The position numbers and the translations under genes are program-made. The notes under the pieces are model-generated. The model worked only from the letters and a program-made list of their open reading frames with translations. It did not search any database and was not told the DNA's origin. From a virus: 64,000 nucleotides of DNA. Position 1 is the stretch's first letter. Each line of letters starts with the position of its first letter. The DNA lies in the IMG/VR virus record IMGVR_UViG_3300042392_000285, positions 1 through 64,000 of that record; one strand, written 5' to 3'. This document shows positions 41,297 through 57,120 of this stretch, one piece after another.

Positions 41297-43084
41297 ATGA
41301 ACGTTACTTGCTCTGCAACCCCATGTCCAGTTATATTGGATTCGACCTGCGTATTCTACGAAGGCCCCTATCTTGTATACTCTGGTATAAATACCAACGA
41401 CAATTTACAAACAGCATTAGAGAAGATTGATGCAGCTTTTGCATCAGCTGGCTATGGTACGTCTGGTACTAGTGGCTCTTCTGGAAGAAATGGAACTAGT
41501 GGAGTTTCAGGAACCAATGGAATAAGTGGTACTAATGGTACCTCAGCAACATCTGGTTCTTCTGGTAGAAGTGGAACTTCTGCTACCTCTGGTAGTTCTG
41601 GAAGGAATGGTACAGCTGGCACTTCAGGTAGTTCTGGGTCTAGTGGTAGAAATGGTACAGCTGGTACAGCAGGTTCATCAGGTACTTCTGGTTCTCATGG
41701 TACAAGTGGCACAAGTGGTACAACTGGTTCTCATGGTACCTCAGGTTCTTCTGGAACATCTGCTTCCTCTGGCTCTTCTGGTACATCTGGATCTGCTGGT
41801 ACAGATGGTAGTGCAGGAACTTCTGGTTCATCTGCCTCTAGTGGTACGTCAGGTTCTACAGGAACTTCTGGCAGTGCTGGTACATCAGGCTCAAGTGGTT
41901 CTGGTGGTGTTTCAGGTTCAGCTGGTACATCTGGATCTTCAGGTTTTACAGGTGATAGATATGCAACCTTCTCAGTACAAACATTCACATTAGGTAATGC
42001 TGGTACTTTACAAGTGAGTCTTGGTTTAGCTTACACTGTTGGTCAAGCAATTATTATTGCTCATGATATTAACAACTATCAAGAGTGTAATGTAATTTCT
42101 TATAACAGTGCTACAGGTGCACTTAATTTTGATGCTCCTACAATAATAATAGGTGGTGGAACATATAGCTCATGGCAAATTAACTTGAATGGTGCCACAG
42201 GTGGTGCAGGTTCAAGTGGTACATCAGGTTCAAGTGGAACTAGTGGTACTACAGGTACTTCAGGATCTACAGGTACTTCAGGTACAACTGGTACAGATGG
42301 CTCATCTGGTACAACAGGAACTGATGGTTCTTCTGGAACTTCAGCTTCTTCAGGTACAAGTGGCAGTTCTGGAACTGATGGCTCTAGTGGAACATCAGGA
42401 TCTTCTGGAACATCTGGTTCTTCTGGAACTAGTGGTACAGATGGATCAAATGGTACAAGTGGTACAACAGGAACAAGTGGCACAGATGGATCTTCTGGTA
42501 CATCAGGATCTAGTGGTACTACAGGAACAGATGGTTCAAGTGGGACTTCAGGTACATCAGGTTCTGATGGAAGCTCTGGAACAACTGGAACAAGTGGAAC
42601 TGATGGTTCTTCAGGTACATCAGGCACAACAGGAACAGATGGTAGCAGTGGTACAGATGGATCTAGTGGAACTTCAGGAACTACAGGTACAGATGGTTCT
42701 AGTGGTACAGCAGCAACATCAGGTATTTCTACATTGATGGCTGGTACAAGTGGTAGTACAATTACTATTCCTCCTGCTGAAGCTACAACAACAAGTACAA
42801 CATCTACTACAACAACAGCTGCTCCAGGTCCAACATTGATTTTTTCTTCAATTAGTGGTCCTAATGCTTGTACACAATCTGGACCTTTCTTTATATTAAC
42901 ATCAGTTACTTATAATGGTGGAACAGGTCTTTGTGATTCAACCTCTTTTGATTCCCCTGATGTTGACCCTTTAAGTGGAGGTACATCTTATGTTTCTGAT
43001 GGAACTAATTTTAGACAAGTTTACAAAGTTCCAGGTGCAGGAATAACATTAATGACATTCACAGGTAGTTGTGTAGCTTGTTAA
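41297..43084 (+). CDS. Collagen-like fibre with Thr-linked Cys-rich end module
   Basis: 595 residues. The N-terminal anchor (1-50, SGINTNDNLQTALEKIDAAF) resembles those at 2224 and 3331. Repeats of GTSGSSG type fill about 54-215. A beta domain (DRYATFSVQTFTLGN to SSWQINLNG, about 216-298) follows, then a longer repeat block with many GTDGSSG units (300-475). A poly-Thr linker (about 497-509) joins an end module (510-595) with Cys residues and a final CVAC. It lacks an S74 chaperone, unlike the fibre at 3331. Codons of the repeats are diverse. It is the first gene behind the promoter at 41192-41220. Likely a virion fibre; binding partner unknown. Confidence 0.8.
   Translation: MNVTCSATPCPVILDSTCVFYEGPYLVYSGINTNDNLQTALEKIDAAFASAGYGTSGTSGSSGRNGTSGVSGTNGISGTNGTSATSGSSGRSGTSATSGSSGRNGTAGTSGSSGSSGRNGTAGTAGSSGTSGSHGTSGTSGTTGSHGTSGSSGTSASSGSSGTSGSAGTDGSAGTSGSSASSGTSGSTGTSGSAGTSGSSGSGGVSGSAGTSGSSGFTGDRYATFSVQTFTLGNAGTLQVSLGLAYTVGQAIIIAHDINNYQECNVISYNSATGALNFDAPTIIIGGGTYSSWQINLNGATGGAGSSGTSGSSGTSGTTGTSGSTGTSGTTGTDGSSGTTGTDGSSGTSASSGTSGSSGTDGSSGTSGSSGTSGSSGTSGTDGSNGTSGTTGTSGTDGSSGTSGSSGTTGTDGSSGTSGTSGSDGSSGTTGTSGTDGSSGTSGTTGTDGSSGTDGSSGTSGTTGTDGSSGTAATSGISTLMAGTSGSTITIPPAEATTTSTTSTTTTAAPGPTLIFSSISGPNACTQSGPFFILTSVTYNGGTGLCDSTSFDSPDVDPLSGGTSYVSDGTNFRQVYKVPGAGITLMTFTGSCVAC
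41455..42725 (+). repeat. Collagen-like coding repeats, second fibre locus, first gene
   Basis: Two blocks (about 41455-41945 and 42205-42725) of Gly-Thr-Ser, Gly-Ser-Ser and Gly-Thr-Asp triplets around a beta domain. The antisense strand is open and encodes Val-Pro-rich shadow frames, a by-product of the triplet periodicity. Confidence 0.85.
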
Positions 43085-43110: not shown

Positions 43111-44712
43111 ATGCCTTACGCTAATATTACCATAACCATTGAAACTGGTAGATCATTCTATCCTGGACAATATGTCCAAGTGATACATGATGAGAACAAC
43201 TACATCTTTGGTCAAGTGGTTACATATGATCCTGTAACAGGAATCTTTGTTTTCTATCCTACCAATTACTTAGGTGCTGGTACATTCAATACATGGACTG
43301 TCGTAGCATCTGCTGTCTCAGGTTCTAGTGGAACAGGTGGAACAAGTGGTACAAGTGGAACAACTGGTACTGATGGATCTTCTGGAACAGATGGATCTTC
43401 TGGTACCTCTGGTTCATCAGGAACTAGTGGAACTGATGGGTCTAGTGGAACCTCTGGAACAAGTGGTACAGATGGTAGCTCTGGTACATCAGGCACTGAT
43501 GGAAGTTCTGGTACGTCTGGAACTACAGGTACTGATGGAAGCTCAGGCACTAGTGGCACTGATGGATCTAGTGGAACAAGTGGAACTGATGGAAGTAGTG
43601 GCACAAGTGGAAGCTCAGGAACTGCAGCTACATCTGGTAACTCTGGTGACTTATATAAGACTACATCTACTACTAGTTTAACATTAGCTGTTGGCACTCA
43701 AAATTTAACTGTTGGTTTAGGACTGGCATATACAATTGGTCAAGGTGTGGTTGTTGCTTACTCTGTAGGCTTCGACATGATTGGTTTTGTTACTTCTTAT
43801 AATTCAGCAACAGGTGCTATGGTATTAACTATAGATTCATTTAATGGATCTGGTACATTTGCTGTTTGGGAAGTAAACCTTGCAGGAGCTGCAGGAGGTG
43901 ATGGTACTTCAGGTACAGATGGTTCTTCTGGAACGTCTGGAACTAATGGTACGTCTGGTACATCTGCGTCAAGTGGAACATCTGGAACAGATGGCTCTAG
44001 TGGTACTACAGGTACGTCAGGAACAGATGGGTCAAGTGGTACGTCTGGAACAAGTGCTAGTTCAGGAACATCAGCTTCAGCTGGTACAAGTGGTAACCAA
44101 GGTGCTGATGGATTCTTAGCAGAGTGGTTATATAGTATAAATCCTGACACATCTGTAAACCCAGGTAGTACATTCTTTAGATTAGATATTAACTCTTGGA
44201 GTGAAACTGTAACAAATATTGCCATCAGTGACACTGCATACAATCCAAATGTAAACTTCTCTACATATTTAAACTTTATTGGAGCAAACTCAATTATTAA
44301 ATTACAAAGCTCAAGTAATGTTGCAACTTATAAGTTTTTAAGAATTGTAAGTAATACACCTTTTGTATCAGGCTATGAAGATTACACTGTAACACAACTT
44401 GCTAGTGGTGGTCCAGATCCTAGTGCTAACGATGCATTCTATTTCAACTTCATTGGTGTGAGTGGTACTTCAGGTACTTCAGCATCGAGTGGTAGTTCTG
44501 GAACTGATGGCTCATCAGGAACTAGTGGTAGCTCAGCTACATCTGGATCAAGTGGAACTAATGGAACAGATGGTAGTTCAGGTACAAGTGCTTCTAGTGG
44601 ATCAAGTGGAACATCAGGTACTTCAGCTTCTTCAGGAACTGCAGCAACCTCTGGTGATTCATCAACATATAATGGAACTTCAGGAACAACACAAACCTTA
44701 CCTTTAACATAA
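43111..44712 (+). CDS. Collagen-like fibre with N-terminal beta cap
   Basis: 533 residues. Residues 1-70 form the beta cap shared by this locus (MPYANITITIETG, then FGQVVTYDPVTGIFVFYP, then FNTWTV). A GTSGTDGSSG repeat block (71-175), a second copy of the beta domain (about 180-262), more repeats, a non-repetitive beta domain (about 330-450) and a last repeat block follow. There is no S74 chaperone and no Cys-rich module. The final repeat block ends abruptly in SGTTQTLPLT. Since fibres of this type usually need a C-terminal folding domain, it may trimerise through another fibre, or have lost its end. The next gene starts 3 bases after the stop. Confidence 0.75.
   Translation: MPYANITITIETGRSFYPGQYVQVIHDENNYIFGQVVTYDPVTGIFVFYPTNYLGAGTFNTWTVVASAVSGSSGTGGTSGTSGTTGTDGSSGTDGSSGTSGSSGTSGTDGSSGTSGTSGTDGSSGTSGTDGSSGTSGTTGTDGSSGTSGTDGSSGTSGTDGSSGTSGSSGTAATSGNSGDLYKTTSTTSLTLAVGTQNLTVGLGLAYTIGQGVVVAYSVGFDMIGFVTSYNSATGAMVLTIDSFNGSGTFAVWEVNLAGAAGGDGTSGTDGSSGTSGTNGTSGTSASSGTSGTDGSSGTTGTSGTDGSSGTSGTSASSGTSASAGTSGNQGADGFLAEWLYSINPDTSVNPGSTFFRLDINSWSETVTNIAISDTAYNPNVNFSTYLNFIGANSIIKLQSSSNVATYKFLRIVSNTPFVSGYEDYTVTQLASGGPDPSANDAFYFNFIGVSGTSGTSASSGSSGTDGSSGTSGSSATSGSSGTNGTDGSSGTSASSGSSGTSGTSASSGTAATSGDSSTYNGTSGTTQTLPLT
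43320..44660 (+). repeat. Collagen-like coding repeats, second gene
   Basis: Three blocks (about 43320-43640, 43895-44100 and 44460-44660) of GTS/GTD/GSS triplets separated by two beta domains. Units resemble those in the gene before it closely enough that gene-to-gene exchange is plausible. Confidence 0.8.
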
Positions 44713-44715
44713 GTT

Positions 44716-45108
44716 ATGCCATACGCAGATTTAACATTCCAAGTTCAGCCAGGTTTAAGATTTGTTGCAAATGATTTTGTAAACGTGTATGTACCCACTA
44801 CTACCACAACAACCACTGCAACACCTACAACTACAACGACCACAACTGCTACACCCACAACAACTACAACTACTACTGCAGCTGTATATTATTATGATGT
44901 AGATAAAATCAATTGTCCTGGATGTGGAACATTCTCAACAGGATTACTTGCAGTTTCTCCAACATTAAAAACTAATGGTTTTTATTATAACATAGGTGAT
45001 GGATTTGTATATAAAGTTAACTTTGGTACAGGAGCAGGGACACCTGTTGTTGATTTAACAGGTGCAGCATCAGCTGGAACAGATTGTTCATTAACTTGTG
45101 CAATATAA
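44716..45108 (+). CDS. Half beta cap fused to poly-Thr linker and Cys-rich module
   Basis: 130 residues. Residues 1-26 (PYADLTFQVQPGLRFVANDF, then VNVYV) match only the first half of the beta cap that opens the fibres at 43111, 46117 and 47548. From residue 27 the sequence turns into three poly-Thr runs separated by AT/AP (27-54). A module of about 75 residues follows, with CPGC, a FYYNIGDGFVYKV strand and a Cys-rich end (TDCSLTCAI). The missing half of the cap opens the next gene. The end module resembles that of the beta-propeller protein at 4950. The gene appears to be made by an insertion into a cap domain. Confidence 0.75.
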   Translation: MPYADLTFQVQPGLRFVANDFVNVYVPTTTTTTTATPTTTTTTTATPTTTTTTTAAVYYYDVDKINCPGCGTFSTGLLAVSPTLKTNGFYYNIGDGFVYKVNFGTGAGTPVVDLTGAASAGTDCSLTCAI

Positions 45109-45122
45109 AATAAAAAGAAATT
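44794..45122 (+). other. Inserted poly-Thr module with stop and restart
   Basis: By comparison with intact beta caps at 46117 and 47548, the segment 44794-45122 interrupts the cap at a loop. It supplies three Thr runs, a small Cys-rich domain, a TAA stop and a short A-rich leader before a new AUG at 45123. No terminal inverted repeats or target duplication could be made out by eye. Confidence 0.55.
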
Positions 45123-46124
45123 ATGGCTAATGCATTTATACATGGAAGAGTTGTAAGTTATGATGATGTCACTGGTAGTTTAGTGGTAACCCCACTTGAA
45201 TACACAGGTGATGCAGGATCATACAATACATGGAACGTTGAATTGGCTGGTAAGAATGGAACCTCTGGTGCATCTGCTAGTTCTGGCACAAGTGGTACTA
45301 GTGGTTCTTCAGCAAGCTCAGGTACACATGGTACATCTGCAACTTCAGGATCATCTGGAACTTCAGGCTCAGCTGGTACGTCAGCAAGCTCAGGGTCTTC
45401 AGGAACATCTGGTACATCTGGTTCCTCAGGAACAAGTGCTGTACAAGGTGGTACAGGTCCTCAGGGTGCTGTAGGAGCACAAGGTCCAACAGGAGTAGGT
45501 GGTTCTAGTGGAACATCAGGTTCAGCTGGAGCTACAGGTCCAACAGGAGCCCCAGGACCTACAGGTCCTACAGGACCTCAAGGACCTCAAGGACCTAAAG
45601 GTCCAACTGGTGCAACAGGACCACAAGGACCTACAGGTACATCAGCTAGCTATAACCAAAACCTTAATGTTGGAGGAGATGTAACATTTACATATCCAAC
45701 TTCAACCACAACTTGGCAAACTGCTTATAGATTTTATATGCCTGGTGATGCATATAAAGGAATTGCAGGTACATATGGTCCTGTATGGTTTGGATTTAAC
45801 TTTGGTTGGGCAAGTAATGCTGGCTTAGGTGGTGCATTTTTCTTTAACTCTTCTACAAGAAGTATGAAAAAAGAAATTGAACCATTCACTAAAGATGCTA
45901 CAGAAATTATAAAGAGCACAGAAATAGTCACTTGGGATTTTGAAAGTGGAGAACATACACAAATTGAACATATTGGATTCATAGCAGAAGATACTCCAGA
46001 AGAATTAGCAACTCCAGATCATAACGTAATGGATACAACTAATACATTAGCAGTTGTATTAAAAGCAATTCAAGAAATTGATAATAGAGTAACAGCTCTA
46101 CAAAATAAAAATAACAATGCCTAA
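45123..46124 (+). CDS. Collagen-like S74 fibre starting with second half of a beta cap
   Basis: 333 residues. It begins with NAFIHGRVVSYDDVTGSL and YNTWNVELAG, equal to the second half of the beta cap of its neighbours; the first half is in the preceding gene. Repeats change from GTSGSS to GPTGPQ triplets (about 42-175). A beta region follows, and the S74-type chaperone starts with STRSMKKEIEPF near residue 243 and ends in a coiled coil. The Ser and Lys of the self-cleavage site are present. The stop overlaps the next gene by 8 bases. With the preceding product it may re-form a complete cap from two chains. Confidence 0.8.
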   Translation: MANAFIHGRVVSYDDVTGSLVVTPLEYTGDAGSYNTWNVELAGKNGTSGASASSGTSGTSGSSASSGTHGTSATSGSSGTSGSAGTSASSGSSGTSGTSGSSGTSAVQGGTGPQGAVGAQGPTGVGGSSGTSGSAGATGPTGAPGPTGPTGPQGPQGPKGPTGATGPQGPTGTSASYNQNLNVGGDVTFTYPTSTTTWQTAYRFYMPGDAYKGIAGTYGPVWFGFNFGWASNAGLGGAFFFNSSTRSMKKEIEPFTKDATEIIKSTEIVTWDFESGEHTQIEHIGFIAEDTPEELATPDHNVMDTTNTLAVVLKAIQEIDNRVTALQNKNNNA

Positions 46125-47172
46125 CGCAACTTTTAATTGTTCACCTAGACTAAGCTATGTAGCAGGAGACTTTGTGCAACTAAGCTATGATGCAGATAAC
46201 TACGTTATTGGTACAGTGGTTTCGTATAGTGATGTAACAGGTGTTATGGTAATCACCCCAGTTAAATCTGTAGGTAGTGGATCATATTCAATATGGAACG
46301 TTCAATTAACAGGCAATGCTGGTTCATCTGGAACAAATGGAACATCAGGAACATCAGGCTCTAGTGGAACAAGTGCTACATCTGGTGATGCTGGAAGTTC
46401 TGGTACTTCTGGAACATCAGGCTCTGATGGTTTAAGTAGATCAAGTGGAACAGCTGGTACATCTGGTTCTAGTGCCACTGCAGGCACGTCAGGTTCAGCA
46501 GGCACATCAGGTGCTATTGGACCAACAGGCCCTCAAGGTGTACAAGGACCAACAGGTGCCACAGGTTCTTCAGGAACATCAGGTCTTTCTAGGAATAATG
46601 GACCAACAGGTGCCACAGGACCACAAGGTCCTCAAGGTCCAACAGGCCCACAAGGACCAGCAAATCCAGGCAATACAGGACCAACAGGAGCTCCAGGAGG
46701 ACAAGGACCTCAAACAGTTTATAACCAAGGATTAACTACAGGTGCTAATGTAAACTTTGGTGGAATGGCTATGACGCAATCAAATGCTGGAGGTAATTAT
46801 ATATGTCCAAAAGTTTCTAATAGTGCAAACCAAGGTGTAAGTTGGTATGGTAATGGTTCAAATTGGTTTTCTTATGGCTCAATTGGTTCTGCTTATTTCT
46901 TTGGTACATCTACAAGAGAAGCTAAAAAGAACATAGAACCATTTATTAAATCTGGACTTGATCTAATTAACCAAACAGAAATTGTTTCATTTAAATATGA
47001 AGGCGAAACACATTATACAGATTTAGTTAAAATAGGATTTATTGCTGAAGAAACTCCTATTGAGATGTCTTCTTCAGATCATGATGAAATGGTTATTCCT
47101 TCCACAATTTGTGTAGCTATGAAAGCAATTCAAGAGCTAGATGAGAAAATTAAAAACTTACAAAATAAATAG
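46117..47172 (+). CDS. Collagen-like tail fibre with S74 chaperone
   Basis: 351 residues with a complete beta cap (1-69: SYVAGDFVQLSYDADNYVIG, then VVSYSDVTGVMVITP and YSIWNVQLTG). Repeats run from GTSGSS to [10 protein letters not shown] (70-205), followed by a beta head (about 206-260) with a GVSWYGNGSNWFSYG stretch. The chaperone domain begins TSTREAKKNIEPF near residue 265, and a C-terminal coiled coil closes the protein. Close relative of the fibres at 45123 and 47548, differing mainly in the beta head, the likely receptor-binding part. It overlaps its upstream neighbour by 8 bases and is followed after 2 bases by a small gene. Confidence 0.82.
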   Translation: MPNATFNCSPRLSYVAGDFVQLSYDADNYVIGTVVSYSDVTGVMVITPVKSVGSGSYSIWNVQLTGNAGSSGTNGTSGTSGSSGTSATSGDAGSSGTSGTSGSDGLSRSSGTAGTSGSSATAGTSGSAGTSGAIGPTGPQGVQGPTGATGSSGTSGLSRNNGPTGATGPQGPQGPTGPQGPANPGNTGPTGAPGGQGPQTVYNQGLTTGANVNFGGMAMTQSNAGGNYICPKVSNSANQGVSWYGNGSNWFSYGSIGSAYFFGTSTREAKKNIEPFIKSGLDLINQTEIVSFKYEGETHYTDLVKIGFIAEETPIEMSSSDHDEMVIPSTICVAMKAIQELDEKIKNLQNK

Positions 47173-47547: not shown

Positions 47548-48615
47548 ATGCCTTATTCAAATTTGACATTCACTGTAACTACAAATCTTTCATTTGTAAC
47601 AAATGATTTTGTACAAGTTAGTGCTAACTCTACCAATTATGTTATTGGAAGAGTAGTGTCATATAATCCTAGCACAGGTACATTAATTATAACTCCTTTA
47701 GAATCAAATGGTTCAGGAACATTTAATTCTTGGACTGTTGAATTAACAGGAGCATATGGAACATCAGGAACCTCTGGAACCTCTGGAACAAGTGGCTCTG
47801 CAGGAACTAGTGGTGCTTCAGTATTATCTGCAGAATCAGGTTCTGCAGGTACATCAGGCTCAAGTGGTTCTTCAGGTGTAGCTGCTACAAGTGGAAGCTC
47901 TGGCTTATCTGCTTCGAGTGGTAACTCTGGTCTAGCTGGTGCCAATGGTCCCACAGGTCCACAAGGACCACAAGGTCTTACTGGTCCACAAGGTGCATTA
48001 GGACCTAGAGGTTCATCAGGTACTAGTGGTGTTAATGGTGGAACAGGACCACAAGGTCCACAAGGAGCTGCAGGTGCTACAGGACCTGCTGGTGCTAGTC
48101 CTACAGGCCCAACAGGCCCTACAGGTCCACAAGGTCCTTCAAATACAAATGGTCAATCACTAAACTATGGTGATAATCCTACATTCAATTCTATTTATGT
48201 TAGTGGACAAGTTTACATGGCTAACAACATGAATAATTTTGGAGGTGTTAGGGGGTGTATAAATGGTTCAGTTTATTTCTATAATAACTCATCTTCTCAA
48301 TGGTATAGTAATGGAGGCATTGGTGCAGGAGGGGGTAACTTCTTCCCAGCCTCTACTAGAGAAATTAAGAAAAACATTGAGCCATTTGCTAAATCTGCAT
48401 TAGAAATAATTAATGATACAGATATTATATCTTTTGAATTTGAAGATGCTGATCTTCAAGGTGAAACACATATAGGTTTTATTGCTGAAGAAACACGAGA
48501 AGAGTTAGCTACTAGTGCTCATGATCAAATAGTTATACCTTCTAGTTTAGGTATTTTAATGAAAGCTATACAAGAATTAGATGAAAAGTTGCAGATATTA
48601 GAAAATAATGCTTAA
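47548..48615 (+). CDS. Collagen-like tail fibre with S74 chaperone, last of the locus
   Basis: 355 residues. Beta cap 1-70 ([48 protein letters not shown]), repeats with GTS/GSA and then GPTGPQ triplets (72-208), a short beta head containing a Gly-rich [12 protein letters not shown] end, and a chaperone starting [13 protein letters not shown] near residue 269. Unlike its neighbours the repeat block includes a non-collagenous VLSAESG break near residue 93. It is followed after 25 bases by the first oxygenase gene, so fibre and modification genes probably share a transcript. Confidence 0.82.
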
Positions 48616-48640: not shown

Positions 48641-49237
48641 ATGAACACCTCTATTGTTTTTCCAAAGCACACTTGTGACTCACAAAATTATTATTTCTTT
48701 AATCAAGGATTTTCTACAGAAGAACTAGACAAAATTTATAATGGAGTTGCAATAATTCCATTTCAAAAAGCAATTATAGGAAATGATGAAGAAAATTTAG
48801 ACATTAGATCATCTTCTATTAAATGGATTCCACCAAATGAACAATGGGGATGGCTTTATGAAAAGCTAATGAACATGGTTATAGAAGCCAATAATGCAAT
48901 TTGGCATTTTGATTTACATAGTTTAATAGATCATATTCAATACACAGAATATTATGCTGATAAAGGAGGACATTATGCATGGCACCAAGATATTGGTCCA
49001 GATGAAATGTCCAAAAGAAAGATAAGTATTACTGTACAACTATCTGATTCTGATGAATATGAAGGTGGTGATTTAGAATACTTTAGAGGAGGAGATCCTG
49101 AAAAAGCTAGTAAAGCACCAAGAGGTAAAGGTGTTGTATTTATATTCCCTTCTTATATGATGCACAGAGTTACCAAAGTAACTAAAGGAACTAGACGTTC
49201 TTTCGTACTATGGGTGGGAGGAGAACACTACAAATAG
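48641..49237 (+). CDS. Fe(II)/2-oxoglutarate oxygenase, prolyl-4-hydroxylase-like
   Basis: 198 residues, single double-stranded beta-helix domain. Metal ligands are visible: HQD in YAWHQDIGPDE (about 111-113) and the distal His in YMMHRVTKV (about 172), followed by the Arg that binds 2-oxoglutarate in TRRSFVLWVGG. The EYEGGDLEYF loop is typical of the PKHD/prolyl-4-hydroxylase group. It follows three collagen-like fibre genes on the same strand. Hydroxylation of fibre side chains is an attractive but unproven role, because most prolines in the repeats are in position X and classical collagen prolyl-4-hydroxylase acts on position Y. Confidence 0.82.
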   Translation: MNTSIVFPKHTCDSQNYYFFNQGFSTEELDKIYNGVAIIPFQKAIIGNDEENLDIRSSSIKWIPPNEQWGWLYEKLMNMVIEANNAIWHFDLHSLIDHIQYTEYYADKGGHYAWHQDIGPDEMSKRKISITVQLSDSDEYEGGDLEYFRGGDPEKASKAPRGKGVVFIFPSYMMHRVTKVTKGTRRSFVLWVGGEHYK

Positions 49238-49242
49238 AATAT

Positions 49243-49731
49243 ATGCAGTCTCTTATTTCTAAGCTTAGCTTAGATAGAAAGTTTACAAGGGAAGAGAAGG
49301 ATATTTTTGTTGGCTATACTCAAAATATTGCAAACATTGAATCAGATTTAGGAAATTCAAAAACTAAATGCATAACTGTATTAGACAAATCTGAACTAAT
49401 TGATATTAAATCTTTTTGTTTAAGTTCTTTAAACAAATACATTAATGATGCTAACATTTACATTACAGAGTCTTGGCTAAATTTTACAATGCCAAGCGAA
49501 GAGCATCAATCTCACAATCATCCTAACAGTTTAATAACTGGCATACTCTATGTTAATGCTAGTGCAAACTTTCATACAATTGTTTTTCCAGAAGTTAAAG
49601 AAACAATTAGTGTAAAAAGAGGTGACTTATTATTATTCCCATCTCATTTATTATATTATGAACCAAAGAATGTAGGAAATGATTTAAAGATGAGTTTAAC
49701 TTTTAATACATCAAAACCAACAACAATATAA
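49243..49731 (+). CDS. Putative 2OG-Fe(II) oxygenase (TIGR02466-like)
   Basis: 162 residues from the AUG at 49243, 5 bases after the preceding stop; an upstream AUG at 49210 would overlap by 28 bases and adds no conserved sequence. The core pattern is that of the phage-rich TIGR02466 family: HQSHNHPNSLITGILYVNA, then GDLLLFPSHLLYY and LKMSLTFNTS. The first two metal ligands (HxH) are present, but the distal His expected before the C-terminal strand reads as Tyr (LLYYEPK). Of the seven oxygenases here this is the one most likely to be impaired. Its stop overlaps the sulfotransferase start. Confidence 0.7.
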   Translation: MQSLISKLSLDRKFTREEKDIFVGYTQNIANIESDLGNSKTKCITVLDKSELIDIKSFCLSSLNKYINDANIYITESWLNFTMPSEEHQSHNHPNSLITGILYVNASANFHTIVFPEVKETISVKRGDLLLFPSHLLYYEPKNVGNDLKMSLTFNTSKPTTI

Positions 49732-50543
49732 TGCAAGAGATATTTTATAATAGCAGCTTGCCCAGATCTGGAAGCACATTATTACAAAATGTATTTAATC
49801 AAAATCCTGATATGTATGCCACTCCTACAAGTGGTGTGGTTGAATTCTTGCAGTCAATAAAGGAAAAGTTCATATTAGCTGAGTTCAAAGCTCAAGATGT
49901 TAACGTTATGGAAAAGGCTGTATTGTCTTTCTGTAGAGAAGGAATAAAAGGATATGCTAATTCAATTTCAGATAAGCCTTATTTTGTAGATAAGAGTTTC
50001 TATTGGGGAATGAACTTTGATTTATTAAAAAGTATTAATGGAAAAGATCCTAAGATTGTAAGTATGATTAGAGACCCAAGAGATGTATTTGCGTCCTTTG
50101 AATCTAACTATAGAAGAAATCCATTGACAATAAATCCATTAATAAGTTGGTCTGATTTGAAGAATACAACAATGGAAAAGAGAATAATAGATTGGAGTAA
50201 AACAAATCCTATTGGTGTTGTATTTGATGCTGTCAAAGATATTATTAACTTTAGACTTGACTCTAAAATATTGTTTATTAAGTATGAAGACTTTTGCGAA
50301 GATCCTAATAGAGAGATGGCTAGGGTTTATAACTACTTAGAAATACCATACTTCCAACATGATTTTAATAACATAGAACAAACTACAAAAGAGAATGATA
50401 TATTCTATTTTGCAAGTCATGAGATTAGAAATGTAGTTAAGAAAAAGGAATCACAAGCTGAACAAATTATAGGTAGGCCTGCATGTGATTGGGTATATAA
50501 AAACTATGATTGGTTCTTTAAGTATTTCAAATATAACAAATAG
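49731..50543 (+). CDS. Sulfotransferase
   Basis: 270 residues. The PAPS-binding 5'-phosphosulfate loop is seen as PRSGSTLL (11-18), and the 3'-phosphate site as RDPRDVFAS (114-122). IKYEDFCEDP and a following LEIPYF strand suit the sulfotransferase fold; a C-terminal Trp/Phe-rich end closes the protein. It should transfer sulfate from PAPS to a hydroxyl on glycan or protein. The acceptor is unknown. An APS-kinase-like gene in the same island (59487-59921) could provide PAPS. The gene starts at a TAATG overlap and ends facing the reverse-strand operon with no spacer. Confidence 0.85.
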   Translation: MQEIFYNSSLPRSGSTLLQNVFNQNPDMYATPTSGVVEFLQSIKEKFILAEFKAQDVNVMEKAVLSFCREGIKGYANSISDKPYFVDKSFYWGMNFDLLKSINGKDPKIVSMIRDPRDVFASFESNYRRNPLTINPLISWSDLKNTTMEKRIIDWSKTNPIGVVFDAVKDIINFRLDSKILFIKYEDFCEDPNREMARVYNYLEIPYFQHDFNNIEQTTKENDIFYFASHEIRNVVKKKESQAEQIIGRPACDWVYKNYDWFFKYFKYNK

Positions 50544-51170
50544 CTACACTGTATTATTTATTTCTAAATAATTCACACCATCGTTCTCAATACCAAGCTT
50601 ACCTTCAAAGAAAGAGTTAAAGGCTAAACTTATTCTAGCAGTTTTGCTTTTGGTTTCTGGAACTCCATGAAACATTTGTGATGGAAACAAAACCATAAAT
50701 CCTGTTGAAACAGGAAGATGATATTGACGAGAGTTGTATGCATTCTTATTCTTTACTACAAATTCCCATATCGTTTCTTTTACATTTGAAAAAACAATTT
50801 CATCATCATTTATATCTGCATTAATATAAATAACTCCACTTATTACACTATTAGGATGATAATGTATATGGTGGTTTTCACCTGGTTCTGTTACGTTTGT
50901 CCATGATTGAGTTAGTTTTAATCTTACTTCTTCTGGTCTTGCTGGTGAATAAATCTCCTCAAAATATTGATCTAAAGCATCTTGTGCAAACTTTTTAAGA
51001 TTTGCCATAATAGGGTTTTCTAGTACTCTATGATTATAAGAACCTTCATTACCAATACTAATTCCCATTTCTTGACTATGTACATAATCTAATTCCTCTT
51101 TTGTAAAATCTCTTTCAAGTCCAAATGTCATCAAGGGAGTTGGAAATAGTTGAAGTGTATTTAGTTTCAT
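50544..51170 (-). CDS. 2OG-Fe(II) oxygenase, TIGR02466-like
   Basis: 208 residues. Motifs: ENHHIHYHPNSVISGVIYIN with the HxH metal pair, GFMVLFPSQMFHGV with the distal His, and ARISLAFNSFF with the 2-oxoglutarate Arg, so the active site looks complete. The N-terminus (LQLFPTPLMTFGL) is characteristic of the family. It is the last gene of the reverse operon and overlaps the gene before it by 4 bases (ATGA). It is paralogous to the next gene upstream, with which it shares the whole length. Confidence 0.82.
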   Translation of the reverse strand: MKLNTLQLFPTPLMTFGLERDFTKEELDYVHSQEMGISIGNEGSYNHRVLENPIMANLKKFAQDALDQYFEEIYSPARPEEVRLKLTQSWTNVTEPGENHHIHYHPNSVISGVIYINADINDDEIVFSNVKETIWEFVVKNKNAYNSRQYHLPVSTGFMVLFPSQMFHGVPETKSKTARISLAFNSFFEGKLGIENDGVNYLEINNTV

Positions 51171-51811
51171 AAATTTAGTTTTAATTGGTTAATACCTGTA
51201 AGTGGTCCTTCAACATAACCTATAGTTCCTGTTAAAAAAGAACTAAAAGCTAGACTAATTCTAACGTAGTTGTTAGTGTTTACAGGTGTGCTATGATACA
51301 AGTTAGCTGGAAATATAATTATATCACCTGTGTTAACAGCATGATGAGAATGGCTATAGTTATATTTAGTTGCCTCTTTAGGTTGTATGTGCCAGTTAAA
51401 ATCAGTATCTGGTTTTGTAAATATAATAGAATCTTTGTCTTTATAAGCATTGATATAAATTACTCCACTCATAAATGAATTATGGTGTTTGTGACTCTCA
51501 TGGTGTCTATCACCATATATAAAATTTAACCAAGACTGTGTAAGTTTTAATCTTACATTGTTTGGATTAATTGGGTTGTATACTTTTAAGAAGAAATCAT
51601 CTAACATTTCTTGACAAAAAGCTTTTATATCTGATAACTTTTCATTGTCAAGAACATTCATATCTGTAGATAAAATATCATGTGCTGTAGCATTTGCTTT
51701 ATCATAATAACCTAATATACAGTTTAATTCATCTTTTGTAAATTCCCTATTTATTTTGTTAGTATAAATTATAGTTGGGAATATTGTTAATATATTTTCT
51801 TGCTGGTTCAT
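51167..51811 (-). CDS. 2OG-Fe(II) oxygenase, TIGR02466-like
   Basis: 214 residues. It shares the family layout with its downstream neighbour: ILTIFPTIIYTNKI at the start, HHESHKHHNSFMSGVIYINA with the metal-binding histidines, GDIIIFPANLYHSTP with the distal His, and VRISLAFSSFLTG with the Arg. It is translationally coupled by ATGA overlaps on both sides. The pair probably arose by tandem duplication and then diverged; the middle loop (residues about 120-165) differs most, suggesting different substrates. Confidence 0.82.
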   Translation of the reverse strand: MNQQENILTIFPTIIYTNKINREFTKDELNCILGYYDKANATAHDILSTDMNVLDNEKLSDIKAFCQEMLDDFFLKVYNPINPNNVRLKLTQSWLNFIYGDRHHESHKHHNSFMSGVIYINAYKDKDSIIFTKPDTDFNWHIQPKEATKYNYSHSHHAVNTGDIIIFPANLYHSTPVNTNNYVRISLAFSSFLTGTIGYVEGPLTGINQLKLNL

Positions 51812-52872
51812 AGGTTTTCTTTTATTGTGTTTAATACAGTGGTCATACTAATAGATTTGTGACATTCAAAATGTCTAGGTGTATCTTCGTGCTCAGGACA
51901 CCAATTCCAATCCCCTTTATTAAACTTGAACACAGGATTGTTCCAACAGCCATTGCATACGTCTTTATTAACTATGCGTATACAGTTAGATTGAAACTCA
52001 TGGTCTGGTGTAGTGAAGTTACTAATCATCACTGTCTTCTTACCTATACCCCAGTTTAACCAACTGATACCACTAGATAAACCAACAAATATATCTGCAT
52101 GATGTAGATAGTTCATAGCTACATTAAGAGACTTATCTTCTAGCTTCTCTGCTCCTAAGTCATCTGCCTCCTGTGATAGTTCTATCACTCTATATCCTAT
52201 ATCTTTTAGAGCCTGAATTAACTCTGGCCAATAATACCAATGCTTACACTGTGCTGTAGATCTAGTAGATATACATATGTACTTACTATCTATTGGTCTT
52301 TCTCCTGGTGTAAATGCTATCCTAGGTTGTATCTCTTCAAATTCTAGAGCTAATACATTACTAGCTGCTTGCTGTAATGGTATAGTGGCAGGATGCGTAG
52401 GCTCTTTATCTTTCTCCCAAAACCAGCCAAGCTCTACTTGAGCCACTATATTATGTACCACCACTCCCCTTTCTACAAACTCTAGCTCAGGATATACAGA
52501 TTCAAATAACTCATTCTTAAAAGAAGACACCACAACGTGGCACTTATACTTCTCTTGAAAGGCTAAACAGTATGGCATCCAAGCTATACTATCTCCAAGA
52601 CTCTTAGACTCAAAGACAATAAATACTCTCTTACCTACTAGTTCATCTAATAGATTAATCTGTAACACTATACGTCCTTGGTACTTAATAAATATGGCTA
52701 TGTTAGATAGATACTTTCTATTAAGCCTAGACCATCCACCTTTCTTCATTTTAGTTTCATAGATAGTTGTATTACCATCTACAAAGCTTACATCGTATTC
52801 TCTACCTTTTCCCCCATCATCCACTAGTTCAAAGTGTAAACCATTGATATGTAATATTTTATATGTTATCAT
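51808..52872 (-). CDS. Autotransporter-type O-heptosyltransferase (GT9-related)
   Basis: 354 residues. An N-terminal beta domain (1-85, GLHFELVDDGG, then YETKMKKGGWSRLNRKY) precedes a GT-B fold with FIVFESKSLGDSIAWMPY, YICISTRSTAQCKHW and DIFVGLSSGISWLNWG. Four cysteines near the end (C306, C309, C325, C337) match the metal-binding finger of bacterial autotransporter heptosyltransferases such as TibC. These enzymes add heptose from ADP-heptose to serines of repetitive secreted proteins. In a phage with Ser-rich fibres encoded a few kilobases away, the fibres are natural candidate substrates, though this is inference. ATGA overlaps on both sides. Confidence 0.82.
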   Translation of the reverse strand: MITYKILHINGLHFELVDDGGKGREYDVSFVDGNTTIYETKMKKGGWSRLNRKYLSNIAIFIKYQGRIVLQINLLDELVGKRVFIVFESKSLGDSIAWMPYCLAFQEKYKCHVVVSSFKNELFESVYPELEFVERGVVVHNIVAQVELGWFWEKDKEPTHPATIPLQQAASNVLALEFEEIQPRIAFTPGERPIDSKYICISTRSTAQCKHWYYWPELIQALKDIGYRVIELSQEADDLGAEKLEDKSLNVAMNYLHHADIFVGLSSGISWLNWGIGKKTVMISNFTTPDHEFQSNCIRIVNKDVCNGCWNNPVFKFNKGDWNWCPEHEDTPRHFECHKSISMTTVLNTIKENL

Positions 52873-53450
52873 TTCTCTGTGTTTAAAAAGAAGGTTTGAA
52901 ATAATCTGCCATCATTTATATCTTTTCCAAAATAGTCTAAAGATACATGGAACAAGTCACCTCTATACATAATAAGTCTATTATAAACATTACCAATCTT
53001 ATCTACCATATCCCATTTTGTATAATCATAACTCTCATTACTGTTTAACCAATTAGTATTTTCTTCATCAGTGTGTTCTGTATGTATCCATCCTTTTAAT
53101 CCTGTTGATTTATGTCTGAATATGCCAGTGCCTGCTGATAATGGAGCATCAGGAGTTAAATAGATAACTCCTGCCCACATTGTTGTTCCATCAGAATGAA
53201 TCCAAGATCTGTCAGTAGCAGTGGTATATTGAAAACAACCAGAGTCTTTGCCTCCCCACCAAGTAACTTCTCCACACATTGGTCTTAATACATCTTTAAT
53301 AATTTCTTTTGTACTATCATTTAAGAATGGAACTGTTCTTCTTCCTGGAAAATGATCTGGTTCTTCTCTATACTCTTGTTCCATAGCAAACTTTCTCACT
53401 TCATCTACATTGTTATAAAAATCTGCTATAGAAATAACTTCTAGTCTCAT
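52869..53450 (-). CDS. 2OG-Fe(II) oxygenase, DUF6445-like
   Basis: 193 residues. Metal site HSD in RSWIHSDGTTMWAGVIYL, distal His in YRGDLFHVSLDYFG, and the Arg in GRLFQTFF. The AGTGIFRHKSTG loop fits the DUF6445 group of oxygenases, different from the TIGR02466 members nearby. A GRRTVPF motif lies near residue 36. It sits between two glycosyltransferases with 4-base overlaps on each side, which ties it to glycan modification or to the same substrate protein as those enzymes. Confidence 0.78.
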   Translation of the reverse strand: MRLEVISIADFYNNVDEVRKFAMEQEYREEPDHFPGRRTVPFLNDSTKEIIKDVLRPMCGEVTWWGGKDSGCFQYTTATDRSWIHSDGTTMWAGVIYLTPDAPLSAGTGIFRHKSTGLKGWIHTEHTDEENTNWLNSNESYDYTKWDMVDKIGNVYNRLIMYRGDLFHVSLDYFGKDINDGRLFQTFFLNTEK

Positions 53451-54460
53451 AAATTATTGTATGTGTTTATGTATAATTGTTGTGTTCTTTCTGATGTATA
53501 TCCTTCATTAATCTTTAATACATTAATGTAGAACTTCTCAAGAGTCTTAGCCACATGGAACCAATCTCTACTATCACGTGCAGCTAACACTTCATTCTTT
53601 CTATGGTCATAAGTTTTAATAACTTCTTTAACACCTTTGATAACAGCATCTGTACTGATGTTTGGTAAGACCCACATACCATCCATATGTCTAGAACCTT
53701 TATAAGTTCCTACAATAGGGATACCACATGCTGTTGCTTCCATTAATGTTAGATTAGGATGTCCTGCTTCTAGCATAGATGGATGTAAGAATATACTATG
53801 AGATTGATATAAATCTCTAGTCTCATCATCTGTAGGGTTTGTTAACTTTAAAGTTAACTTTTTGTATTGTAATAGCTCTGAATGGATGTCAAAGAACTTT
53901 TGGTTGTCAGGATGTCCAGCTATAGTGATAGGTAGGTCTAACTCTTCAGCTGCCTCTATACCATATCTAAATCCTTTTCTATCAAAGCCACTGTCACCTG
54001 CTAATCCATTATTAGCTATCATCAATAAAGAGTGTGTCTTAGGAGGATAGTCAGGAGTAAAGAATGCAGTGTCAGCACCATGTGGTAGATAGAATAACTT
54101 ATCAGTCTCACTAAAGTATTCAATCAAATACTCAGCATGTGTAAAGGATATAATGCTATGCTTCATAGCTTCTAGATTTTGCTTATACACCCAGCTATCT
54201 TTACCATACCATTCTGTATGGTGGTCATGTAGAGAGTACACATAAGGTATACCTTTATCTCTACAATATAAAGCTTGATTAGCTAGGTGAGCGTGTACAA
54301 TTGTATCAGGCCATTTCTCTAGCTCATTCATATATTTAACCTCTACATTATGACCTAACTTACTTAGTCTATCTTTGTAAGCCCATATAAGTCTTTCTAC
54401 AGCACCCCATCCATTTGGTGGTATAGTTATTAGTCCTGTAGCTACGTGTACTATTCTCAT
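53447..54460 (-). CDS. GT4-family glycosyltransferase
   Basis: 337 residues, GT-B fold. The N-terminal half opens with VHVATGLITIPPNGWGAVER and contains VHAHLANQALYC. The C-terminal half has FDRKGFRYGIEAAEELDLPI, then HPSMLEAGHPNLTLMEATA, the donor-binding region of GT4 enzymes with two Glu residues, and GIPIVGTYKGSRHM. It is a soluble enzyme without a membrane segment. Donor and acceptor cannot be read. Its place among other transferases and oxygenases in one coupled operon suggests a stepwise glycan assembly. Confidence 0.82.
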   Translation of the reverse strand: MRIVHVATGLITIPPNGWGAVERLIWAYKDRLSKLGHNVEVKYMNELEKWPDTIVHAHLANQALYCRDKGIPYVYSLHDHHTEWYGKDSWVYKQNLEAMKHSIISFTHAEYLIEYFSETDKLFYLPHGADTAFFTPDYPPKTHSLLMIANNGLAGDSGFDRKGFRYGIEAAEELDLPITIAGHPDNQKFFDIHSELLQYKKLTLKLTNPTDDETRDLYQSHSIFLHPSMLEAGHPNLTLMEATACGIPIVGTYKGSRHMDGMWVLPNISTDAVIKGVKEVIKTYDHRKNEVLAARDSRDWFHVAKTLEKFYINVLKINEGYTSERTQQLYINTYNNL

Positions 54461-57120
54461 TTTCTAAATGTTTTTTGCATATTGTCTATTAAAGAAAACC
54501 CATCTGCTTGGGTGGTAAATCTCTTCTTAACTATACCCATTTGTGGCCCTGCAAAGATATTATTAAAATACATATCAGCAGCATCCCACTTGTGTTTTCT
54601 TAAAGTATTTTTTAAATAATCTGCTACAGATATAGGGAACATAATAGATTGTAAACCTATGATGTGATCTGTAACATACATGTCTTCATTGATATCTTTA
54701 ATCATAGGACTCTGAGGCCAGCCATATTCTAATGTATCCTTATCTCCAAAGGACATATAGTTGATACCATTTGGTCCCATTAAGTGTACACATTCCTCAA
54801 CTTTTCGTATGAAAAAGTGTATGTCTGTTTCAATGATACAGTCTCCCTCACACACCATTAAGAAGTCACAATCATGAAACTCACTTAAGATGGCATTCTT
54901 GAATGCTTCATAGCATCCATAATGTGCTGGGGTAAGTGCAGTGCCATACTGTCGAACTTGCTCTTCGCTGAAGAGTTCCATTGAAACACAACTGGGTCTA
55001 ATGCAGTTATATGATGGTGGTAATGACTTATAGGGCTCGTTAGTGTGTAGGATATATTCCCATCCATAGTCTTTGACTTGTTCAAGGGAAGCTCTGCTTG
55101 CTTGTTCTCTTTCATCATTTAATGTAGTTTGTATGTGAACTAATTTAATCTTTGGTCTATCTTTCTTCTTCCATTTAAACTTACCTGTGTTAGTATATTT
55201 ATGTAAGGTGTCTTTGTTTAATTTGAATTCTTCTACCTTGTAGCAATCATCTCCATCATAGAAATCCATTCTTACAAGTATAGGTTCTCCTTTGAATTCA
55301 AACTCATAAGACCACTCATGTATGTTTGAAGGGACAATCCTTTTAGACACATCTTCTCCAATGGCTACATATATCTTTCTATTGTCTCTGTTGTATGTAA
55401 AGAAATAGAACATGTAAAAGTTTGCCTTTCCTTCTACAGGAATAATAGAATAGTATTCACTGTTAGATGCTACACCTAATCCACTGTGTATCAATAGAGT
55501 ATCCTTATCATTAGTAACTAATTGTATATCATTTTGATTGAAACTAAATATCACCTTAGATAGATAGTCTTCTAGATAGTTCTCACATTTTCTACGCTTA
55601 CATGTTTCATTCCACTGCTCTGGTGTACGTACATCATCAAACTCTTTTAAGAAGAAGTCTGTGTCAAACATAATACCATTAGTCTGAATTCCCTTACCCT
55701 GTGGAGTGGGTAGAGTGGCAGCACAAATTTTCTTATCTGTCTTGAACGCATCATTCACTGCAGGGATATCCTTCTCATTTAATATAACATCATATGTAGT
55801 GTAGAAGAACCTCTTGAATCCAAGCTCTTTAGCAGCCTTGGCACCATTGAATATATTAGTTAATACAGTCAATGATTGATTACTATCCTTCAAACCATTA
55901 ATGTTAATCTCAGCATAGTAGTCTGCTCTTTCATTATAGAACCTAGTGTAATAGCTATGGTGAGTTAGGGGATTATGTGCATCGTATATGTAGTAGTCAA
56001 CCATACGTTGTATGTCTTGGTCTACAGGATAGTGAGACAACAGGATGATCTTTCTACCTAATGGCTTAAGACTGTTGATAGTATCCTTGGTCCACTGTAC
56101 TCTGTCCTTGATATTAGGATAGGTGCCCAAGATGATACACTCCTCGTCTAATACATCTAGGTTTAGTTTTTTCACAATACTAGTAGCATCACTACCAATA
56201 TCTCCAGTTAAATAAACCATGTTCTCTTCACCATTATACTTGTTACAATATACATCTAGATTGTACATTGCTTTGACTAAGTCATCATATTGCATAGCCT
56301 CTTTAATAGCTATTGGGTTAAGCTCTTTGTTACCTCTGTCTCCCTTAGATGGGAAGAAGAATACATCACATGCTTCTAGGAATTCATTTACATCATTACG
56401 CTCTCCCCACACAACACAGTTATCTGGTTTATCAGCCATCAATGGCTTCCAATAATCTTCAAAGTTACCTGCTTGGTTACCTAGGAAGTGAAACTTAACC
56501 TTGTGGTTCTTAAGATACCTACCTAGTTCAAATGCATAGGCTTGATTCTTACGTGGTGTAAATAGTCCTACAGTTACAAAGTGTTTATAAGAAGGATCTA
56601 ATCCAAATTGCTTTTGTCTTTCCACCTTGTTTCTAGACTTCTTATCTATAGGATATTCAATTACATCCATAGGTATGTCTAAATGTACATATTTAAATAT
56701 GTTATAAGAGCTTACAAATACAAAGCTATCAGGCATCCATTTCTTATGCTTAGGATTAAATGAGCTATCGTGTGTAGTCTCAGATATCTTCCAGGTTCTA
56801 GTGTTCGAATAGATGAATGCTGTAAGCTTGTCATCCATAAACATCTCTGGGAACTCTTCCATTACCACCACATCTGGACTGAAGCTGCACATAATATGCA
56901 CTAGCTCAGAGAACTTATCTTCTCCTAGAGAATGGAAGTTAACTCCCTCTGTAAGCATGTCAATTATCTTGTTGCGTTGTACAACAAATGACCATGCTAG
57001 GAATGAATATTCTACCACCTTAACTTCAAAGTGATCTTTTAGTAACTCCACTTTATTTACTGTTACCTGGGGGGCTCCTCCTGTTGATAGATGAGGAGTG
57101 ATTATTAATAGTTTTTTCAT
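54457..57120 (-). CDS. Multidomain glycosyltransferase (GT4 plus two further modules)
   Basis: 887 residues from the AUG at 57120, which overlaps the preceding stop as ATGA; an in-frame AUG 18 bases upstream is less likely. Residues 1-290 are a GT4-like GT-B domain (IITPHLSTGGAPQVTVNKVE, then LFTPRKNQAYAFELG, then FFPSKGDRGNKELNPIAIKEAM). The middle (about 325-570) resembles a nucleotide-sugar transferase-like alpha/beta domain (GRKIILLSHYPVDQDIQRM; FFYTTYDVILNE). The C-terminal part (about 670-887) is GT-A-like with FLMVCEGDCIIETDI, similar to GT25-type enzymes. The three units may add successive sugars to one acceptor. Confidence 0.75.
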   Translation of the reverse strand: MKKLLIITPHLSTGGAPQVTVNKVELLKDHFEVKVVEYSFLAWSFVVQRNKIIDMLTEGVNFHSLGEDKFSELVHIMCSFSPDVVVMEEFPEMFMDDKLTAFIYSNTRTWKISETTHDSSFNPKHKKWMPDSFVFVSSYNIFKYVHLDIPMDVIEYPIDKKSRNKVERQKQFGLDPSYKHFVTVGLFTPRKNQAYAFELGRYLKNHKVKFHFLGNQAGNFEDYWKPLMADKPDNCVVWGERNDVNEFLEACDVFFFPSKGDRGNKELNPIAIKEAMQYDDLVKAMYNLDVYCNKYNGEENMVYLTGDIGSDATSIVKKLNLDVLDEECIILGTYPNIKDRVQWTKDTINSLKPLGRKIILLSHYPVDQDIQRMVDYYIYDAHNPLTHHSYYTRFYNERADYYAEININGLKDSNQSLTVLTNIFNGAKAAKELGFKRFFYTTYDVILNEKDIPAVNDAFKTDKKICAATLPTPQGKGIQTNGIMFDTDFFLKEFDDVRTPEQWNETCKRRKCENYLEDYLSKVIFSFNQNDIQLVTNDKDTLLIHSGLGVASNSEYYSIIPVEGKANFYMFYFFTYNRDNRKIYVAIGEDVSKRIVPSNIHEWSYEFEFKGEPILVRMDFYDGDDCYKVEEFKLNKDTLHKYTNTGKFKWKKKDRPKIKLVHIQTTLNDEREQASRASLEQVKDYGWEYILHTNEPYKSLPPSYNCIRPSCVSMELFSEEQVRQYGTALTPAHYGCYEAFKNAILSEFHDCDFLMVCEGDCIIETDIHFFIRKVEECVHLMGPNGINYMSFGDKDTLEYGWPQSPMIKDINEDMYVTDHIIGLQSIMFPISVADYLKNTLRKHKWDAADMYFNNIFAGPQMGIVKKRFTTQADGFSLIDNMQKTFRK

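What the first reader, a model, noticed from the sequence alone, without database searches (positions are those of the whole stretch)
44716..45260. A fibre cap domain split into two genes by a poly-Thr module with its own stop and restart
Seen: residues 1-26 of the gene at 44716 match the first half, and residues 2-42 of the gene at 45123 match the second half, of one beta cap that is intact in the genes at 43111, 46117 and 47548. Between the halves lie three poly-Thr runs, a Cys-rich module, a stop codon, a short A-rich leader and a new AUG. The break falls at a predicted loop. Inference: a movable module inserted into the cap and left both halves translatable, so the cap may re-form from two chains and display the extra module on the fibre.
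Basis: partly seen in the sequence, partly recalled or inferred. Interest (0 to 1): 0.82.

Follow-up and report, generated by a model that had tools for sequence, protein, structure and literature searches.

The report
Phage fibre domain split by module
In a probable crAss-like environmental phage and its relatives, a small domain at the base of a surface fibre is cut into two separately translated pieces by a swappable threonine-linked module, at the same loop in what look like three independent cases, as if the first piece were a natural snap-on tag for displaying extra modules on the virus.

Summary
44716-45105 encodes strands 1-2 of a ~68-residue cap, then a poly-Thr linker, a 4-Cys module and a stop. 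45123-46124 restarts with strands 3-5, then collagen-like repeats and an S74 chaperone. AlphaFold places the break in the loop between strands 2 and 3 of the intact cap (pLDDT 84). Relatives supply the contrasts: intact orthologues; the same module at the C-terminus of a different fibre (L003, 71%); a different, LamG-like module at the same break (L004). The 47548-type paralogue is split at the same loop in L016 and apparently L021, each with an intact sister. L021 carries the L004 module (81%) in a different fibre. An in-frame TAA before the restart excludes a frameshift fusion.
Best explanation: poly-Thr modules are exchangeable C-terminal decorations. When one lands in the cap loop, the 25-residue first half probably becomes a docking tag that completes the cap in trans. 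Exchange is well supported. Re-assembly is inferred: no complex could be modelled, though the first half is conserved while its cargo changes. This is a new variant of fibre domain shuffling. In passing: an Aah/TibC-type O-heptosyltransferase lies 3 kb downstream and occurs in 12 of 13 virus records searched.

The parts
44716..44790 (+). First half of the cap (25 residues, strands 1-2), start of the split fibre gene
   Evidence: Cap HMM positions 1-25, iE 6e-5; conserved L14, F16, D20; 20 of 22 residues identical in L004 although the module differs; unstructured when modelled alone, pLDDT about 40
44791..44880 (+). Poly-Thr linker, three T7 runs separated by ATP
   Evidence: Direct reading; mixed Thr codons ACA 18, ACT 11, ACC 3, ACG 1 in the whole gene; fewer and different runs in L001
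44881..45108 (+). 4-Cys beta module and stop codon TAA
   Evidence: 97% identical in L001, 71% at the C-terminus of L003:3640-6225, 36% at the C-terminus of window 4950-6509; beta fold, pLDDT about 75; no Pfam match above its cut-off and no PHROG or NCBIfam match
45109..45122 (+). A-rich leader of the restart, with an in-frame TAA at 45111
   Evidence: stop 4 codons upstream in the frame of 45123, so no continuous reading from the first ORF
45123..45251 (+). Second half of the cap (strands 3-5)
   Evidence: Cap HMM positions 28-68, iE 1.7e-13; nearest intact cap is the orthologue L029:1150
45252..46124 (+). Collagen-like repeats and S74 chaperone of the split fibre
   Evidence: Pfam Collagen 51.4 bits and Peptidase_S74 31.4 bits, both above cut-off
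43111..43311 (+). Intact N-terminal cap (comparison)
   Evidence: Cap HMM full length
46117..46314 (+). Intact N-terminal cap (comparison)
   Evidence: Cap HMM full length, iE 1.5e-33
47548..47751 (+). Intact N-terminal cap, modelled by AlphaFold; the paralogue that is split in L016 and apparently L021
   Evidence: pLDDT 83.7, five strands
42755..43084 (+). Approximate extent of the poly-Thr linker and another Cys module at the C-terminus of fibre 41297; this is the slot that holds the 44716-type module in L003 and is empty in L004 and L030
6240..6509 (+). Poly-Thr linker and a relative of the 44716 module at the C-terminus of a BNR-like protein
   Evidence: 39% identity, E 1.6e-9

Best explanation
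The phage carries a set of exchangeable C-terminal decorations (poly-Thr linker plus a small beta or LamG-like module, ending in a stop). They are swapped by recombination among fibre and other virion proteins. In some lineages such a decoration, with a downstream leader and start codon, landed in the loop between strands 2 and 3 of the N-terminal cap of a collagen-like fibre. The cap is now made as two chains. Most likely strands 1-2 (44716 product) pair with strands 3-5 (45123 product) to rebuild the small beta domain, so the first 25 residues act as a non-covalent docking tag that hangs the poly-Thr module on the fibre base. Shown: the split, its loop position, intact orthologues, module exchange, recurrence in a second paralogue. 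Inferred: recombination as the means, re-assembly of the two chains, and display of the module (possibly for adsorption or surface binding).
For: Complementary halves 1-25 and 28-68 of one domain. Break in a loop of the predicted fold. Intact orthologues L003:7602, L016:5001 and L029:1150, the last sharing GDAGSYNTW and N-x-S-I-Y-G with the split genes. Same module at another protein's C-terminus in L003. Different module at the same break with 91% identical first half in L004. Same loop split in the 47548-type gene of L016, with both halves present. In L021 the second half is preceded by the L004 module at 81%. In a tree of the C-terminal domains the split genes of L016 and L021 each group with a different intact sister (0.91 and 0.99), so three events is the simplest count. 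First half conserved: 20 of 22 residues identical between window and L004 while the cargo is unrelated. First half disordered alone. Stop in frame before the restart.
Against: No complex was modelled and no protein data exist, so assembly in trans is not shown. The first half is short and its divergence small, so conservation over long times is weakly tested. The nearest intact relative of the first half is not resolved. Splits are rare: start-anchored scans of 2.9 million viral contigs found only the L016 and L021 cases. In L021 the first half lies beyond the contig end.
Confidence: 0.62

Rival explanations
1. The second half works without the first: the fibre lost strands 1-2 and attaches by another route, and the 44716 product is a remnant or an independent small protein.
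For: The second-half gene keeps an intact collagen-like stem and S74 chaperone and could assemble as a trimer without a full cap; nothing here shows binding between the products.
Against: The first half is kept, in frame and with its cap residues, in all four contigs of the window group and in L016, although the module differs between window and L004. A remnant need not be kept through such a replacement. The break is always complementary, with no lost strand.
Confidence: 0.25
2. The 44716 product is a free docking peptide that invades or decorates the intact caps of other fibres (46117, 47548), not only the split partner.
For: The first half resembles the first half of 47548-type caps about as well as its own orthologue, and the DNA at the end of the first half is 85% identical to that of 47548 over 27 bases.
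Against: Strand invasion into an intact beta domain is less favourable than completing an open one (general knowledge); the split first half always sits next to an open second half.
Confidence: 0.08
3. Recent disruptive insertion, assembly error or pseudogene.
For: Splits are rare among caps.
Against: Same split in several metagenomes, restart codon and leader kept, two kinds of module at the site, recurrence in a paralogue.
Confidence: 0.04
4. One protein made by frameshifting or readthrough.
For: A-rich slippery-looking sequence near the junction.
Against: The second ORF is in another frame and its own frame is closed by TAA at 45111, between the first stop and the restart; L001 has the identical junction, and the open frames of L004, L016 and L021 also begin only a few codons before the restart.
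Confidence: 0.01

Closest known systems
Domain mosaicism of phage receptor-binding and tail proteins (Smug et al. 2023, PMC10684548)
   Same: Unrelated modules are shuffled between tail or fibre proteins in related phages.
   Different: Here the exchanged module ends the protein and sits inside another folded domain, leaving two chains that share one fold. The outline and abstract read here do not describe split caps; the full text was not checked.
Collagen-like, S74-chaperone-tipped phage tail fibres (Pfam PF01391, PF13884)
   Same: The stem and tip of gene 45123 and its neighbours.
   Different: The cap domain has no Pfam or NCBIfam name of its own in these searches; its fold matches domains of collagen-repeat proteins of uncultured Caudovirales phages.
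Split-protein complementation and tag/catcher pairs (split GFP, SpyTag/SpyCatcher), pilus donor-strand complementation (from general knowledge)
   Same: A short beta-strand piece made as a separate chain completes an open beta domain and brings a cargo with it.
   Different: Engineered or evolved for other tasks; here inferred only, in phage fibres, with exchangeable cargo.
Crassvirales, phiCrAss001 virion (Bayfield et al. 2023, PMC10172136)
   Same: The window's 3655-aa protein matches crAss-like RNA-polymerase subunits.
   Different: The paper's text does not mention collagen or threonine; its tail fibres are shown as unmodelled density.

Membership tests
Collagen-like S74 tail fibre | Collagen triple-helix repeats | tested here: met
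   PF01391, 51.4 bits in 45123, cut-off 27.2
Collagen-like S74 tail fibre | C-terminal S74 intramolecular chaperone | tested here: met
   PF13884, 31.4 bits, cut-off 22
Collagen-like S74 tail fibre | Presence in the virion as a fibre | not testable with these tools
   No proteomics or structure of this phage
Split domain that re-assembles in trans | Two separately encoded pieces that are complementary parts of one domain | tested here: met
   HMM positions 1-25 and 28-68
Split domain that re-assembles in trans | Break in a loop, no strand lost | tested here: met
   AlphaFold strands 21-25 and 31-40 flank the break
Split domain that re-assembles in trans | Pieces bind and restore the fold | not testable with these tools
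   Only single chains can be modelled; the first half alone is unstructured
Self-mobile element (transposon, intron, intein, homing gene) | Own recombinase, endonuclease or self-splicing part in the insert | tested here: not met
   The 44716 product has no Pfam match above its cut-off and no PHROG or NCBIfam match; RNA families were not searched
Programmed frameshift or readthrough fusion | Open reading across the junction | tested here: not met
   In-frame TAA at 45111
Crassvirales | Conserved RNA-polymerase subunit proteins | tested here: inconclusive
   First 1000 aa of the 25171 ORF match crAss-like RNAP subunits at 24-30% identity, E down to 1e-17, over part of the query; capsid, portal and terminase were not compared

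The most novel reading that the evidence does not exclude
The cap's first two strands are a natural plug-in docking tag: any module fused behind the 25-residue tag by a poly-Thr linker is snapped onto an open cap at the fibre base. The phage family can therefore change surface cargo without touching the fibre protein, and this arrangement arose about three times at the same loop.
Probability: 0.45. Interest if true: 0.78.

Novelty: new variant of a known kind. Interest (0 to 1): 0.62.

Why it matters
If the halves re-assemble, phages have evolved a natural split-domain display system with exchangeable cargo, comparable to engineered tag/catcher pairs. It would show how a domain insertion that ends a protein can be tolerated, and it gives a ready, testable tag (25 residues) and socket (about 41 residues). 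Even without re-assembly, the locus shows poly-Thr-linked modules moving between proteins of environmental, probably crAss-like, phages.

Tried and rejected
tblastn of the module protein and of the intact cap against 50,697 phage records gave nothing. A broad G-R-V-V-S-Y DNA pattern mostly hit an unrelated motif. Sequence search of the cap in the PDB gave only weak hits, best SPT5 (E 0.004), and the fold search only weak hits to V/F-ATPase subunits (best E 0.04); taken as a hint of a small beta-barrel, not as homology. The module's fold found no relative in the PDB. Genome contigs gave only inner-type caps, mostly in Bacteroidetes bins. Frameshift or readthrough fusion rejected. The idea that the restart codon was copied from the neighbouring fibre gene fits L004 (17 identical bases TAACAATGGCTAACGCA at both starts) but not clearly the window, so it stays a lead. 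The nearest intact relative of the first half is not resolved by alignment scores. Literature searches on poly-threonine phage parts and split fibres found no paper describing this; only a few search terms were tried.

Full report
What is in the sequence. The window lies in a 67 kb virus record. A cap HMM from 15 intact copies places the 44716 product on positions 1-25 (iE 6e-5) and the 45123 product on 28-68 (iE 1.7e-13). Between them are a poly-Thr linker, a 75-residue module with four Cys, TAA, a 14-nt A-rich leader and a new ATG. An in-frame TAA at 45111 separates the second ORF from anything upstream, so two chains must be made if both are translated.

Position of the break. AlphaFold with 79 aligned copies models the intact 47548 cap with mean pLDDT 83.7 and five strands: 6-9, 21-25, 31-40, 45-54, 63-66. 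The split falls in the loop 26-30. Half one carries two strands and half two carries three. Within the 44716 protein modelled alone, the first half is unstructured (pLDDT about 40), while the Cys module folds as a beta domain (about 75). That model used only eight sequences, and only two of them contain the first half, so its low confidence is weak evidence by itself.

Relatives: intact, moved and exchanged. L001 and L002 have the same split and module (cap halves 88-100% identical, module 97%). The syntenic gene in L003 (7602-8921) has an uninterrupted cap, and the window's Cys module (71%) sits instead at the C-terminus of the upstream fibre, in the slot where the window's 41297 gene carries another module. 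L029 and its near-identical contigs have an intact orthologue with the same unusual GDAGSYNTW signature as the window's second half. L004 has the same break and a 91% identical first half (22 residues) but a different module, LamG-like by my reading of its sequence and without a Pfam match above cut-off, plus an extra 78-aa ORF. The C-terminal slot of the 41297-type genes holds different modules, or only a bare poly-Thr tail, in different relatives. So poly-Thr modules are interchangeable protein ends.

Recurrence. In L016 the third fibre gene (47548-type), not the 45123-type, is split: MPYSNMTFTVTTGLAFVVNDFVLISA, poly-Thr modules, stop, then [15 protein letters not shown]. In L021 a 47548-type second half (MAGDNYIIGRVV) follows directly on the end of the same LamG-like module as in L004 (81% over 79 residues); its first half would lie beyond the contig end. 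In a tree of the C-terminal domains L016's gene groups with the intact L003:10576 (support 0.91) and L021's with the intact L004:9493 and window 47548 (0.99), while the 45123-type split genes form part of another clade with intact members. Three independent splits in the same loop is the simplest reading, with the caveat that fibre genes recombine: the L001 tip groups with L029 although its cap is the window's. DNA patterns for a start codon just before N-Y-I-I-G returned only L016 and L021 in 2.9 million viral contigs, so this arrangement is rare.

Mechanism. Shown: a C-terminal decoration module occupies a loop of the cap, both cap parts are kept translatable, modules at the site differ between relatives, and this happened in two paralogues. 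Inferred: the two chains rebuild the cap, so that strands 1-2 act as a docking tag. The inference rests on complementarity without lost strands, on the loop position, on conservation of the first half when the cargo changes, and on recurrence. The main rival is that the second half alone suffices. A possible substrate for exchange between paralogues is the DNA at the end of the first half, 85% identical to that of 47548 over 27 bases ending at the break (44760-44786 and 47592-47618). In L004 the restart ATG and its surroundings match the next fibre gene's start over 17 bases, a lead for how a start codon was acquired.

What it is related to. The fold of the cap matches domains of collagen-repeat proteins of uncultured phages (TM about 0.82). 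In the PDB only weak small-beta-barrel matches appear. The 25171 ORF matches RNA-polymerase subunits of crAss-like phages, so the window is probably an environmental crAss-like phage of Bacteroidetes; the habitat was not given and 'lake or freshwater' would be a guess. Shuffling of fibre domains is well known (PMC10684548); a fibre domain divided into two chains by an exchangeable decoration was not found in the papers searched, which is a limited search.

A neighbouring observation that may bear on function. Downstream lie three 2OG-Fe(II) oxygenases of type PF13759 and one of type PF13640, a sulfotransferase and several glycosyltransferases, one of which is an Aah/TibC-type autotransporter O-heptosyltransferase above its curated cut-off (TIGR04414, 250 bits). 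Twelve of 13 cap-bearing virus records searched have it. Ser/Thr-rich fibres and poly-Thr linkers are plausible acceptors; this is an inference from co-occurrence.

Verdict. Observation confirmed; interpretation of a movable module supported; re-assembly plausible and untested. Overall a new variant of a known kind, of moderate to high interest because it is directly testable with two short proteins.

Noticed in passing
51811-52872 (-): Aah/TibC-type autotransporter strand-loop-strand O-heptosyltransferase (TIGR04414, 250 bits, above cut-off) in a phage, about 3 kb from the fibre genes; found in 12 of 13 cap-bearing virus records, only 4 hits in 50,697 named phage records. Possible glycosylation of Ser/Thr-rich fibres or poly-Thr linkers.
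   Followed up: partly
48641-58055: Possible fibre-modification island: 2OG-Fe(II) oxygenases (48641, 49210, 50547-, 51170-), sulfotransferase (49731), glycosyltransferases (51811-, 53450-, 54460-, 57120-) beside collagen-like fibres.
   Followed up: partly
L001:4024-5985 C-terminus; L004:1-1737 C-terminus; L030:1-1119 C-terminus: Fibre genes that end in a bare poly-Thr tail (e.g. AEVTTTTTTTAAP*), i.e. a linker without a module.
   Followed up: partly
L004:6811-7044: Extra 78-aa ORF between the LamG-like module and the restart, with a signal-peptide-like start and a C-terminal hydrophobic stretch; unlike a fibre part.
   Followed up: no
4950-6509: BNR/Asp-box repeat-like protein (below Pfam cut-off) that ends in a poly-Thr linker and a relative of the 44716 module.
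   Followed up: partly
L004:7042-7070 and L004:8036-8064: 17 identical bases (TAACAATGGCTAACGCA) around the start codons of the split second half and of the next fibre gene; possible copying of a start site.
   Followed up: partly
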